In this document: positions 16,880-64,000 of the stretch, piece after piece | Layout: the number at the start of each line of letters is the position of its first letter | How positions within the stretch are numbered: position 1 is the stretch's first letter | DNA from: Polyodon spathula | Lineage: Eukaryota; Chordata; Actinopteri; Acipenseriformes; Polyodontidae | Direction of reading: 5' to 3' | Length of the DNA: 64,000 nucleotides | Assembly: GCF_017654505.1 (NCBI RefSeq) | Contig: NC_054534.1 | Coordinates: 12,379,071 to 12,443,070, forward strand | The notes under the pieces: model-generated | Told to the model about the DNA's origin: nothing | Seen by the model: only the letters and a program-made list of their open reading frames with translations | Database searches by the model: none | Program-made: the position numbers and the translations under genes

Positions 16880-16982
16880 TGTGGTCACCAGTTTGTGCCC
16901 ATTCTCTTCTCTGTTACACACGAAAAACCGACAATGAAAGCCTACAATGTGTTCAGAGCTCTCAACTCTCCCAGTACTTACA
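16880..16982 (-). pseudogene. ADAMTS12: Possible ADAMTS12 thrombospondin exon remnant
   Basis: After a TTTTAG acceptor the sequence starts TGTAAGTACTG, the cysteine codon that opens each thrombospondin exon of this gene. Further on it encodes VESSEH and GFHCRFF, resembling the VxxxxH...FHCxF part of the repeat after the one at 17.2 kb. It is about ten codons short and needs a frame change, so it is a broken remnant at best. It could be chance. Confidence 0.35.
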
Positions 16983-17188
16983 CTAAAATGCATATACAGA
17001 TGTTATTATGTCCTGGCTAAGCATGAGTAAGAGACTAATGGAAAAACAACAGATTCAGCACTCGAGGAAGTACCATTTTGGCTCCCTGTAATGGACTTGA
17101 ACCCAATATTAATAAGGCAGGTGTTTTTCTTTTGGTCATCACCAAAATGCAACATGAAAATGATGTTAAAATGAGCCAGAATACTTAC

Positions 17189-17336
17189 TCCAATTAACAC
17201 TTTTCCAGGTTGTGCATGGGCGGAGATGACACCTTCTGGCAGGGTCCTGTCTTTTGATGTTTTCACATTGAGACTCCTCATTAGTGCTGCACTTGACTGT
17301 TCTCCAGACTGCTCCAAGTACACAAGTTGTAGAGCA
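17189..17336 (-). pseudogene. ADAMTS12: ADAMTS12 thrombospondin type 1 exon
   Basis: The acceptor CTTCTGCCAG is followed by codons for CSTTCVLGAVWRTVKCST, then RCHLRPC and WKSVNW. This matches the first C-terminal thrombospondin repeat after the mucin region of ADAMTS12, including the diagnostic RCHLRPC. The frame is open throughout. The glycine of CSTTCG is Val. The donor is uncertain. GTAAGT lies inside the TGG-AGT-AAG codons, and the donor expected after AAG reads TATTC, as if one G were missing. Confidence 0.85.
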
Positions 17337-18054
17337 CTGGCAGAAGAGCAAGACCCTTTGATCAAATCTTAATTTCCATTGACATACAGTTGCTTAAATA
17401 AGCTCATTTACAATGCTATTTCAACTTAGAAATGAGAGTTTTGTGAACACTGCCAATGCTGACCTGCTGTAGCTAGTGCCATTATCTGTGTTTACCAGAT
17501 TAGTTTTACCCTCTATACTATTACGACAGGCACATTGTTAGGGAGGAGGGAGCTTAGGTCTTCAAATAATTATATTTAATACAAAACTAAATTTGTCTTT
17601 TGGGCCACTGCATCTTTAACAATGGGGACATCATTAGAAAAGGATCAACTCTCAAGAGTCCTAGGCTGAATGAAAGGGATAAGCAGATCAGAACTGAGCT
17701 AAATTTGCAGAAAAACAGCTATTTATATCAAATTTGAATAACATTATTGACTACAAATTGGCATGGTGTTAAAAGTATCCAAGTAAAAGGAAAACCACAT
17801 GCATTACCAAATGTGTTAAAATAAAACAAAACAAGTTATAGAACACTTCATGCTGTACAATTGCTTTTACAAATCCATGGTCAATTACTTTGATGGTGAA
17901 AGGTGATTTTTGTTGAGCAGTACAGGTTTGAAAATGGAAAAAATTCCACATTAGAGCTTGAGAAATGAAAAATAAGGTTTGCAAATGCAGCAATTTAACT
18001 GAAAGCAGGATGATATCAAATCAGTTCCTATCAAAGCAGTAGAATATTAGTGTA

Positions 18055-18167
18055 TTTAGTGTACAATGATTTGGAATTTGGTTTCTTTGAAATATCACAA
18101 GCTTCTTTAGCAGTTGAGGCACAAGTCACTCCTCTGGTCCGTATTCCTCCCCACATGTAACTGAGCA
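18055..18167 (-). pseudogene. ADAMTS12: ADAMTS12 thrombospondin exon with frameshift
   Basis: The acceptor CTTTCATAG is followed by TGC TCA GTT ACA TGT GGG, the CSVTCGGG start of a thrombospondin repeat. A run that should read GGGGGAGG is GGGGAGG (about 18,148-18,152), a one-base loss that leads to a stop within a few codons. Past that point the other frame gives IRTRGVTCAS and KEACDISKKPNS. Two later positions where the repeat needs Cys read Tyr codons. The left boundary is approximate. Confidence 0.82.
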
Positions 18168-18959
18168 CTATGAAAGGAGAGAGGTTGAGTCAAAAAAATT
18201 AAATTCCTGCTTGAACACATTTTTAATTCTGAACAATACACAAAAAGCCTAAGTACTAATAAAGTGAAAACACATGAAAACAAAAATCATTTGAAATGGA
18301 TTTGCAAACTTCTATTGTCAAACAATATAAAGTCTTGTCACAGTATTAAAAAGTTGTCAAGTAAAACACACAACCTGCATACTGTCAATAAGAATATACA
18401 CTGATATTCTTCTAAATAAATTTACAGTAGCTTACAGATAATATAGGATCTCAACTCATACTAAATAGGCTTGAGTGTAAATTACTTTTTTCTATAATTA
18501 ATATTATTCTTCCAGCTACTGTACATACAGTATTTGTTGCCAAGACGACCCTGAATAAAATACATAGGACCTCATTCACTAAATGATGGTGTTTTGGACA
18601 TTATACTGCATGAAAAAGGAAGATCACTTCACACGGTTTCATCCAGTGATAAACACCTTATTCAACTTAATAGATGCAAAAATACAGTGGTGTAACCTAA
18701 TTAGCATACACTTTGTAACACACCATATATACCACACAGTATGGGCTAAATAGAGTGCCAATTTACAACAAGTTAGGTGCCACTGTATGAGATATCCAAC
18801 TTGAAATACAATAGAATCCTATTCTCCATTTATACACGTAAACAAGTATAAATGTAAGACATTCCATGTAAAAACAAATAGATCAACTAGGAGAGAAATC
18901 TAACACCAACAATCATTTTCATCTCTCACACTGGTCCAACTAATTCAAAGGAATTTCAA
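18168..18959. other. Intronic stretch
   Basis: AT-rich intron sequence with no further feature that I recognise. Confidence 0.5.
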
Positions 18960-61227: not shown

Positions 61228-63066
61228 CTGCAAAAAACCATAATCACAAGAGTTATGGAGATGATGAGGGAGAACATGTAGGGCCATCCCTCTCTACTCT
61301 AAAAAAAACAGATCAGGTTTCTGTTTCTGTATCTAACTATTCATTTGACAGAACCACTATTTTTCTATGTACATAAAACATCACACAGGAACACACAGAC
61401 AAACTGCGCTTTTTTGCTATGTGCACAATCAGAGTACATGAACTATTTAAAATGTGTTATTGAAACCAAAACTCCGACAACTGGACTAACAGCGTCTGTA
61501 CATATATATTAGAAAAAGAAAAGAAAGTTTGGTTTGAAAAGTTTTCAACCATTTTAATGCTAAAGAACCTGGGAGTTTGAGATGTTTTGGGCACAACTAT
61601 AGTGAAGAGATAAAGAAAAGGAACAAAAAAAAAACTTTTTGAGGGAAGGTTAAAGTAATTTGTGGGGATCAGCAACTAGATTCATGTCACTGTGCTGTGT
61701 GCAGCATCACAAGTATAGGTTTTTGAGGTAGTAGTGCAGTATAATAGTTTGTAGTGGTTATTTAAATAACAAATAACAAATAACAGAAGCCCTAATTATG
61801 ACTTTACGTTGGCTTTATATAGGACTCCATGACATAAAATTACTACCCACTGCAATCTTCTAAATGCAACTTGATTCACAGGACCTGCTCAAGTGGCTAG
61901 CATTTCTCAGTCTCTACCCTGAAGGTGAGTGGGTGTCCTCCGATCTCACAAGCATACTAATTCCCTCTGTACACCCAGGAGTTCTACAGCAGATGTCTAC
62001 AAGCTACCATTCCTTGAGCTGTCCTCTTTGAGCTTAGCATGGTCTGCTTTACCATGGTGAGGATAAACAGCCCCCTCTTCATTGTGCCTTCTTAAGCCGC
62101 AGGAGGACCAGTGTCCAAACAACGCTCCTCCTGGTCCTCCTGGGGTTTAGGGAGGCACAATCAACAGGGAACTGGATGCAAACCTGCACTCCCCTGACTA
62201 TGTGACTTACCCTGCACACCAAACAGGGACTCCATAGATGCCTTATTGTATAAACTAATAAAATGAACACCAATAAAATGTGGTGGAGAGGAGATGTAGG
62301 AGGCAAAAAACAAGATAGACAAAAGGGGAAAGAATGGCTCAATCTAGAGATTACCTTTTATTTTCTGGACCAGAAAAAAAATATCTGCTTCATTTCTCGC
62401 TGTGGCTGAGGATGACTATTAGTTTTGGGCATCAATCAAGCAAACCTAATCACCAGGCCAATTACAATAACAGTCAGGGAGCAATACAAAGCAATGAATG
62501 TTCTCAATATTTTGATTTTATTATTTTGTCCTTGTCAGAAAGAACACCAGTGTTAAACAATAGTTTGACTTTTTTTATTATGTGAACAGTACCCAAAAAC
62601 CCTTGACCCACATAATTTGTTTCTTAGTACCCACTTTATAAGATCAGACATCTCTCATTTAGAGCCATACTGTATGCCAGTCATGTATGTGTGCTGGAGA
62701 TAACTGAAATATCAGGTTGTCTGGTACAGAAACAATGTGGTTGATTTTCAATCCTTGTGCCAACATTTGTGTTGAACAATATTATAAAACAAGATAACAA
62801 TAAATATATGATAAGTTTGAGCAGTTAAATTTAGATATGTTTTTGTGGGTTGTTTTAAGCAATTACCTCTAATTAGCATTAGCAACATTGTTTCTGATCC
62901 CTTTATAACTGTGCTATAAAACTATTTTCTTAGCTCATCTTTGTATTTAAATTATAGGGTATGTGGAGTGAGGCTGACCTGCATATGCTTACATATTTAG
63001 CTGTACCAACCAATAAACCAACTGAGATGCAGTTCAGTTTTTTCAAGGGGAATGAAAATACAGTAC
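61228..63066. other. Intron; expected exon not found
   Basis: The exon that should follow HELGH (completing the zinc site and leading to the SGWG exon) ought to lie here on the minus strand. I did not find it by eye. A donor-like CAGG/GTAAGT on the minus strand at about 62,211 follows an open frame that does not resemble the family. Confidence 0.45.
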
Positions 63067-63216
63067 CTGTGGCCCAGCTCATGTGCAACTGTGAATGCTA
63101 CAGGGAGCCCCGAGTCCTCATTGATATTACAGCTTCTATGGGGCTGGCACAATCCAGAAAGACGGGAGAGTCCCAGTGTCTCACATGGCTGCTTCTTCCC
63201 AGCACATAGATCTTTT
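63067..63216 (-). pseudogene. ADAMTS12: ADAMTS12 metalloprotease exon with HELGH zinc motif (intact)
   Basis: The acceptor CTGTTTTCTTTAG and donor GTACTG frame 150 bases that encode KDLCAGKKQPCETLGLSRLS, GLCQPHRSCNINEDSGLP and FTVAHELGH. The last carries the first two zinc-binding His and the catalytic Glu of the HExxHxxGxxH site. No damage is seen. The phase joins correctly to the previous exon (the Arg codon is split). Confidence 0.9.
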
Positions 63217-63579
63217 CTAAAGAAAACAGGGGTGAAAAAAGAGCCAATTAGAAAGAAAAAAGAAACATTACCTATAAATAGATATAGTATTTGAACTTGT
63301 GAGCTGCTATTACTACAGTTGTAAAGTTTTTTGATGGATTCCTAAGAATAACATCAAATTAAATTGTGAACAAGCACATCGGCTCCCACCAATGCTATAT
63401 ATATTCAAAATTAGTCACTAGAAGGCAAAAGTATGCCAAGACACAACTGCATCATAATTGGCAGCTCTACGTATATGTAAAAATATAAACGTGACATAAA
63501 GGCAAACGTACAGACAAATCGGATGCTTAATACAATGATGCTGAAATAATTGTAATAATGATTGAATTTTAATAATAAC

Positions 63580-63704
63580 CTGGTAATAAGCACTACAACA
63601 TCATGGTGAGCTGGAAGGGTATCACTTTTAGGGTTGATGCTCTTCTGCCACTTACAGAAACTTGAGAGGGTATTGTCTGCATGGAGGACAATCTTTAACC
63701 CTTT
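63580..63704 (-). pseudogene. ADAMTS12: ADAMTS12 metalloprotease exon (intact)
   Basis: The exon encodes KGLKIVLHADNTLSSFCKW, QKSINPKS and HHDVVVLIT. It starts in phase 0 after a CTTTTTCAG acceptor and ends AG/GTTATT, a GT donor of weak consensus. The match to the SSFCKWQKSINPKSD...HHDVAVLLTR part of ADAMTS12 is strong. Confidence 0.9.
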
Positions 63705-63943
63705 CTGAAAAAGGCGATATAGTATCCAGTTGAATTTACTAAGGGCACAAATGAAAAAGGGAGAAAAACAAGTACATAAAAGAAGAGGGGGGAAAAAAGC
63801 AGCAAACGGCAGAAATTAAGACACATTGGGCCTGATTTACAAAGCTTATATGTTAACACCAGACCTCATTTAGATAAATCAAAACAGGATTTAACATGCA
63901 CGTTAAAATCACTGTGCTAATAATGTGACATCTGACACTATAC

Positions 63944-64000
63944 CTCCTCTTCTTTTAGTAGAATAAGCCGCAAGAGCACAATGTGAACCGCGTTGCCAAT
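63944..64000 (-). pseudogene. ADAMTS12: ADAMTS12 metalloprotease exon, cut by the window edge
   Basis: Minus-strand codons give IGNAVHIVLLRLILLKEEE followed by donor GTATAG. This fits the start of the reprolysin-type metalloprotease domain (GNxxxIxVxRLILLEEE). The phase is 0, matching the next exon. The exon continues beyond the window. Confidence 0.88.

What the first reader, a model, noticed from the sequence alone, without database searches (positions are those of the whole stretch)
16880..64000. ADAMTS12 copy with a clean metalloprotease start and a decayed tail
Three exons at 63-64 kb are undamaged, while almost every recognisable exon further left has a defect: a one-base loss at about 61,099, Cys and Gly losses at 47.08 kb, a frameshift at about 31,645, Cys-to-Phe plus a frame change and TAG in the 21.9 kb exon, and a one-base loss plus two Cys-to-Tyr changes at 18.1 kb. 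Read errors are an unlikely general cause because two long transposon frames (1,436 and 930 codons) are open in the same assembly, and substitutions at conserved cysteines are not indel errors. In a polyploid fish this would fit a decaying duplicate.
Basis: partly seen in the sequence, partly recalled or inferred. Interest (0 to 1): 0.75.

Follow-up and report, generated by a model that had tools for sequence, protein, structure and literature searches.

The report
Dead duplicate of paddlefish ADAMTS12
This stretch of American paddlefish chromosome 1 holds the ruined second copy of a tissue-remodelling protease gene left over from an ancient genome doubling, while the working copy sits on the partner chromosome 2; it is an ordinary pseudogene, though easy to read.

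Summary
The window is Polyodon spathula C1 (taken as chromosome 1). On its minus strand lies a broken ADAMTS12 copy that continues past both window edges. An intact copy lies on C2; the two loci are collinear through introns, so this is a genome-duplication pair, not a retrocopy. Of 24 coding exons (22 modelled, 2 inferred from matches), 9 are absent, including those for the start codon, signal peptide, prodomain and third zinc ligand. Fifteen remain, carrying 15 disabling lesions (truncations included). At 456 codons invariant in outgroups, 56 changes fall on this copy and 5 on C2 (p = 6e-12). Its 'clean start, decayed tail' pattern is not: the exon just beyond the window edge has a 34-bp deletion and a stop, a 3.7-kb deletion beside the clean exons removed half the active site, and a clean run this long is expected by chance (P = 0.71). 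Most listed defects are confirmed; two 'Cys-to-Tyr' changes are a deletion breakpoint misread. By a rough estimate the copy has decayed for most of the time since the copies separated. Ordinary; interest low.

The parts
63944..64000 (-). Exon 3 of the model (res 289-316), undamaged; runs on to 64,027 outside the window
63580..63704 (-). Exon 4 (res 317-358), undamaged frame and splice sites
63067..63216 (-). Exon 5 (res 358-408), undamaged; encodes HELGH, the first two zinc ligands (motif recalled)
62985..62987 (-). Junction of a 3,694-bp deletion that removed exon 6 (res 408-456: third zinc ligand and Met-turn, motifs recalled)
   Evidence: no match to the exon on C1 near the gene
61084..61227 (-). 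Exon 7, 1-bp deletion at 61,100
57000..57094 (-). Exon 8, 2-bp insertion at 57,026
52559..55121 (.). 2.57-kb stretch present in the chromosome 1 copy and not at the matching place on C2, with GC-rich repetitive frames
52362..52507 (-). Exon 9, frame open; Cys542Arg, Gly546Trp, Trp559Gln
47592..47594 (-). Junction of a 7.67-kb deletion that removed exon 10
47073..47206 (-). Exon 11, Cys679Ser, donor GT to CT
33558..37083 (-). 3.5-kb non-LTR retrotransposon (endonuclease and reverse transcriptase) in the chromosome 1 copy, not at the matching place on C2
31593..31717 (-). Exon 12, 4-bp insertion at 31,637
27065..27066 (-). Junction of a 1,993-bp deletion that removed exon 13 (spacer)
26313..26668 (-). 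Place where exon 14 is expected; no homologous exon found
22693..22777 (-). Exon 15, acceptor AG to AA, 3' end and donor deleted
21865..22066 (-). Exon 16, 5' end with acceptor deleted, Cys906Phe, 1-bp deletion at 21,907, TAG
18063..18167 (-). Exon 17, 5' remnant: 1-bp deletion at 18,152, then about 880 bp of the exon and the donor deleted
17189..17336 (-). Exon 18, 5-bp deletion next to the donor, Gly1302Val
14748..14921 (-). Exon 19, TGA (Arg1370stop)
8787..14629 (+). 5.8-kb LTR retrotransposon in the intron after exon 19, not at the matching place on C2; LTRs 8,787-9,496 and 13,920-14,629 are 98.7% identical over 710 bp

Best explanation
The window carries an unprocessed pseudogene: the chromosome 1 ohnolog of ADAMTS12 in the American paddlefish. 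SHOWN: an intact copy on C2; DNA collinearity of the two loci through introns; 9 of 24 coding exons without a counterpart; 15 disabling lesions in the rest; an 11 to 1 excess of amino-acid change on this copy at conserved sites; transposons present on this copy only. INFERRED: the pair arose in the paddlefish genome duplication, C2 alone meets the need for the protein, and the C1 copy stopped being maintained early and has since eroded by small indels, multi-kilobase deletions and retrotransposon insertions. It makes no protease, having no start, signal peptide, prodomain or complete active site. The three clean exons are simply those not yet hit.
For: Second copy found with exon pieces from this window; the annotated 1,544-aa Polyodon spathula ADAMTS12 lies on a contig of the same length as C2. 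It maps onto 22 C2 exons with 21 introns, 20 GT-AG and one that I read as GC-AG; two matches further upstream are taken as two more exons. Collinear chain of C1 against C2 through introns and past the 3' end. Missing exons and lesions. 56 C1-derived against 5 C2-derived changes, 5 unassignable, at 456 outgroup-invariant codons; 4 of 56 Cys lost; 3 stops; dN/dS 0.52; p = 6e-12. Intron and flank K2P 0.112 against dS 0.121. Chr1 and Chr2 are reported as a nearly full-length duplicate pair (PMC8042750, passages); C1 is taken as Chr1 from its length.
Against: Three adjacent exons are lesion-free with lower dN/dS (0.21, 95% 0.09-0.48, against 0.63, 0.44-0.97, elsewhere); nominal tests against the other exons give p = 0.07, 0.07 and 0.04. 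These exons were picked because they look clean; allowing for that, P = 0.71 for the lesion gap (0.27 if the 3' part of exon 2 is added) and 0.40 for the amino-acid differences. Overall dN/dS is below 1, but it averages both branches. No transcript data were available. Whether the pair separated before or after the sturgeon split is unsettled.
Confidence: 0.96

Rival explanations
1. Assembly or read errors in an otherwise working second gene.
For: Several lesions are 1-5-bp indels, a type that long-read errors can produce.
Against: Three stop codons and 4 Cys losses are substitutions. Exons 6, 10 and 13 lie in deletions of 3.7, 7.7 and 2.0 kb whose flanks are joined on C1, and the missing exons have no match on C1 near the gene. 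The C2 copy in the same assembly is open through all 22 modelled exons.
Confidence: 0.01
2. Exons 3-5 survive by selection, for example as part of another transcript or a truncated product.
For: No lesion in 359 bp, dN/dS 0.21, nominal p 0.04-0.07.
Against: The longest of all lesion-free runs is expected to be this long (P = 0.71), and the lowest amino-acid difference over three-exon windows is this low with P = 0.40. The upstream exon is frameshifted and the downstream one deleted.
Confidence: 0.03
3. A local segmental duplicate or a retrocopy, not a genome-duplication copy.
For: Little: a small local duplication of the last exon does exist left of the window.
Against: Introns and 3' flank are kept in order on the partner chromosome, and another related locus at C1:29.5 Mb has its best other match at C2:75.4 Mb, 83-92% identical in four pieces, in the mirrored position.
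Confidence: 0.01

Closest known systems
ADAMTS12 (intact paddlefish copy on C2, protein P0037, 1,544 aa)
   Same: Same exon order; in the retained exons 649 alignable codons at dS 0.12 and dN 0.06
   Different: The window copy lacks 9 of 24 coding exons and has 15 disabling lesions in the rest
Ohnolog pseudogenes after genome duplication (duplicate losses in paddlefish, PMC10199039)
   Same: One copy intact, one eroded in place on the homoeologous chromosome; that paper attributes most single-copy paddlefish genes whose sturgeon counterpart is duplicated to gene loss (passage)
   Different: Nothing in kind; the loss is only documented here exon by exon
ADAMTS7 pair on C19 and C24 of the same genome
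   Same: Sister gene, also present as two copies; all 6 of 6 held pieces score higher with ADAMTS7 than with ADAMTS12 proteins
   Different: Much less diverged (K2P 0.038-0.049 over three pieces of about 3 kb, exons included, against 0.112 for introns and flanks here); whether both copies are intact was not tested

Membership tests
ADAMTS12 (functional member) | Start codon, signal peptide and prodomain exons | tested here: not met
   Residues 1-221 of P0037 match C2 closely and nothing on C1 near 12.4 Mb at E <= 1, 27 of 27 candidates scored
ADAMTS12 (functional member) | Complete reprolysin zinc site (HELGH plus third His) and Met-turn (features recalled) | tested here: not met
   HELGH exon intact, next exon deleted
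ADAMTS12 (functional member) | Open frame through disintegrin-like, Cys-rich, spacer, mucin-like and thrombospondin parts | tested here: not met
   Frameshifts, stops, lost splice sites and exons
Ohnolog pseudogene of ADAMTS12 | Sequence derived from ADAMTS12 | tested here: met
   Where the same query part hits both, the C2 ADAMTS12 exon scores above the C19/C24 ADAMTS7 exon
Ohnolog pseudogene of ADAMTS12 | Introns kept, position on the homoeologous chromosome | tested here: met
   pairing of Chr1 and Chr2 from PMC8042750 (passages)
Ohnolog pseudogene of ADAMTS12 | Loss of constraint | tested here: met
   56 against 5 changes at 456 outgroup-invariant codons
Ohnolog pseudogene of ADAMTS12 | No functional transcript | not testable with these tools
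   no RNA data held

The most novel reading that the evidence does not exclude
The chromosome 1 copy was lost almost as soon as the two loci stopped exchanging sequence, so the start of decay dates local rediploidization. At exons 11-12 that separation came after the sturgeon split, a late-resolving patch on a chromosome pair reported as mostly resolved before it.
Probability: 0.25. Interest if true: 0.4.

Novelty: new member of a known kind. Interest (0 to 1): 0.18.

Why it matters
Small in itself. It is a well-preserved fossil gene with an intact partner, useful for measuring neutral decay, deletion size and transposon timing in a slowly evolving polyploid fish. It also bears on a disagreement in print about when chromosomes 1 and 2 separated: about 45.6 Ma in PMC8042750 (section read) against primarily before the sturgeon-paddlefish split in PMC10199039 (passages). 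It warns too that a domain can look clean only because the window ends there.

Tried and rejected
Selection on the clean exons: left as unproven after correcting for choosing the cleanest run. Dating against sturgeon: only one useful sturgeon fragment was retrieved (P0004, Acipenser sinensis). A third protein search aimed at more listed 102 rows, none labelled as sturgeon ADAMTS12 (one other A. sinensis row, P0239, is 48% identical and was not used; some rows carry no organism). Sturgeon proteins may be hidden among the 9 members of the cluster that P0037 stands for. Same-strand all-against-all comparison of 28 short loci as a divergence yardstick, reporting pairs with at least 1,000 aligned bases, gave 6 rows: C10/C13 0.102, C29/C31 0.055, three C19/C24 rows, and one row that is the window locus overlapping itself; orthology of the C10/C13 and C29/C31 pieces was not tested. 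Paper searches: 'paddlefish, rediploidization, whole genome duplication' 61 papers, 15 seen as listing; 'ADAMTS12, pseudogene, fish' 24 papers, 10 seen as listing, none about this locus by title and abstract start; 'paddlefish, ADAMTS12' one paper, PMC8042750, whose one mention is in a list of spp1 neighbours for a synteny search; 'sturgeon, paddlefish, pseudogenization, ohnolog' 4 papers, seen as listing. I make no wider claim that the locus is unpublished. A comparison with solved structures gave relatives only (ADAMTS1, 4, 5, 13) and was not needed.
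Full report
What and where. The window is G000:C1:12,379,071-12,443,070 of a 1.54-Gb genome. A protein search returned ADAMTS12 of Polyodon spathula (P0037, 1,544 aa) from a contig of 109,144,785 bases, the length of C2, so I take the genome to be American paddlefish. C1 (110.70 Mb) fits the reported Chr1 (110.67 Mb, PMC8042750, passages). Six pieces of window exons, searched in the whole genome, hit this locus and, in six matches of 79-96% identity, a second one at C2:93.58-93.64 Mb; weaker matches include C19 and C24, which are ADAMTS7 (6 of 6 held pieces score higher with ADAMTS7 than with ADAMTS12 proteins).

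The intact copy. Residues 164-1544 of P0037 map exactly onto 22 exons at C2:93,553,735-93,658,006, with 21 introns: 20 GT-AG and one for which I chose GC-AG among three possible splits. Two matches further upstream, at C2:93,500,796 (residues 1-41) and 93,501,277 (residues 30-171), are taken as two more exons; their junctions were not modelled. Pfam finds propeptide, reprolysin, Cys-rich, spacer and thrombospondin domains in the protein.

The window copy. C1 minus strand and C2 plus strand form a collinear chain through introns, from exon 2 to beyond the last exon. Short matches further upstream are probably repeats and were not relied on. Exons 1, 6, 10, 13, 14, 20 and 21 of the 22 have no C1 counterpart; the best alignments there score 18-48, against 176-423 for the 15 others. 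Exons 6, 10 and 13 fall in deletions of 3,694, about 7,670 and 1,993 bp whose flanks are joined on C1. A genome-wide search with exons 6, 10, 13, 14, 20 and 21 found all six on C2 and none within C1:12.36-12.50 Mb (120 of 235 candidates scored, E <= 0.1). A search with residues 1-221 found the first three coding exons on C2, relatives of at most 49% identity elsewhere, and nothing on C1 near the gene (27 of 27 scored, E <= 1). So 9 of 24 coding exons are missing and 15 remain.

Lesions in what remains. Exon 2: 34-bp deletion, in-frame 9-bp deletion, TGA. Exon 7: 1-bp deletion. Exon 8: 2-bp insertion. Exon 11: donor GT to CT. Exon 12: 4-bp insertion. Exon 15: acceptor AG to AA, 3' end and donor gone. 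Exon 16: acceptor gone, 1-bp deletion, TAG. Exon 17: 1-bp deletion, 3' 880 bp and donor gone. Exon 18: 5-bp deletion next to the donor. Exon 19: TGA. Exons 3, 4, 5, 9 and 22 have none, though 9 and 22 have each lost a Cys. I count 15 disabling lesions, truncations included and the in-frame deletion left out (list typed into).

Constraint. Over 649 aligned codons dN is 0.063, dS 0.121 and dN/dS 0.52 (95% 0.37-0.73). At 456 codons where bowfin, gar and bichir agree (at least two of the three present), 56 changes are on C1, 5 on C2 and 5 are unassignable (binomial p = 6e-12). Aligned intron and flank differ by K2P 0.112 over 33,190 bases; this counts alignable sequence only, so it may be low. If half of that is the neutral branch of C1, the 56 changes amount to 0.93 (95% 0.68-1.24) of full neutrality, so the copy has probably been dead for most of the time since the loci separated. 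This is rough: it assumes a clock and equal neutral rates, and the interval covers only the count of 56.

The clean block. Exons 3-5 (359 bp) have no lesion and dN/dS 0.21 (0.09-0.48) against 0.63 (0.44-0.97) elsewhere. Tested as if chosen in advance they differ at p = 0.07 (two tests) and 0.04. But they were chosen because they look clean. With 15 lesions scattered over 2,046 bp, a gap of 359 bp or more has P = 0.71, and of 482 bp or more (adding the 3' part of exon 2) 0.27. The lowest amino-acid difference over windows of three adjacent retained exons reaches this value with P = 0.40. The block is bounded by a broken exon outside the window and by the deleted active-site exon.

Timing. Of 8 differences between the C2 protein and the sturgeon fragment P0004 over 191 residues, 4 fall where C1 can be read, and C1 agrees with C2 in all 4; two of these (673, 698) are derived relative to gar, bowfin and bichir. 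This suggests that C1 and C2 separated after the sturgeon lineage, or exchanged sequence then, but it rests on 86 codons and one fragment. PMC8042750 dates Chr1/Chr2 at about 45.6 Ma and the family split at 81.5 Ma (section read); PMC10199039 reports the six largest chromosomes as primarily resolved before that split (passages). My data do not settle it. A related locus on C1 (29.5 Mb) matches C2 (75.4 Mb) at 83-92% in four pieces, so the ADAMTS12 pair does not look unusual for this chromosome pair, while ADAMTS7 on C19/C24 is much closer (K2P 0.038-0.049, exons included).

Transposons. Three stretches with almost no gap on the C2 side are extra in C1: 8,787-14,629, 33,558-37,083 and 52,559-55,121 (which lists three further places where C1 is longer). 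The first has LTRs 98.73% identical over 710 bp, about a tenth of the C1-C2 divergence by my arithmetic, so it came long after the copies separated.

Verdict. An ordinary ohnolog pseudogene.

Noticed in passing
9,548-13,876 (+), inside 8,787-14,629: LTR element whose single 1,442-codon frame carries a SCAN domain and zinc knuckle, then integrase, then reverse transcriptase and RNase H. Integrase before reverse transcriptase in a gypsy-type element, with SCAN in gag, fits the Gmr1 group (name and features recalled; only a paper listing was seen).
   Followed up: partly
33,599-36,556 (-): Non-LTR retrotransposon with a 985-codon open frame, endonuclease plus reverse transcriptase, in an intron of the dead copy.
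   Followed up: partly
52,559-55,121: 2.57-kb stretch with repetitive frames open on both strands (53.2-54.6 kb), absent from the matching place on C2; not identified.
   Followed up: no
6,743-7,321 (-): 192-codon frame that resembles a Tc1/mariner transposase by eye (recalled); no Pfam match at E <= 0.001.
   Followed up: partly
C1:12,371,045-12,371,173 and 12,373,460-12,373,558, left of the window: The last ADAMTS12 exon matches twice on C1, about 2.4 kb apart, so part of the dead copy seems to have been duplicated locally.
   Followed up: no
L001/L004, L002/L003, L015/L016, L021/L022, L027/L028 and window: Within one genome, pairs of similar loci differ widely in divergence: C19/C24 0.04-0.05, C29/C31 0.055, C10/C13 0.10, C1/C2 0.11, as expected if rediploidization was asynchronous.
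   Followed up: partly
C2:93,583,807 and window 61,083: The exon 7 donor reads GC in the intact copy and GT in the dead one.
   Followed up: no
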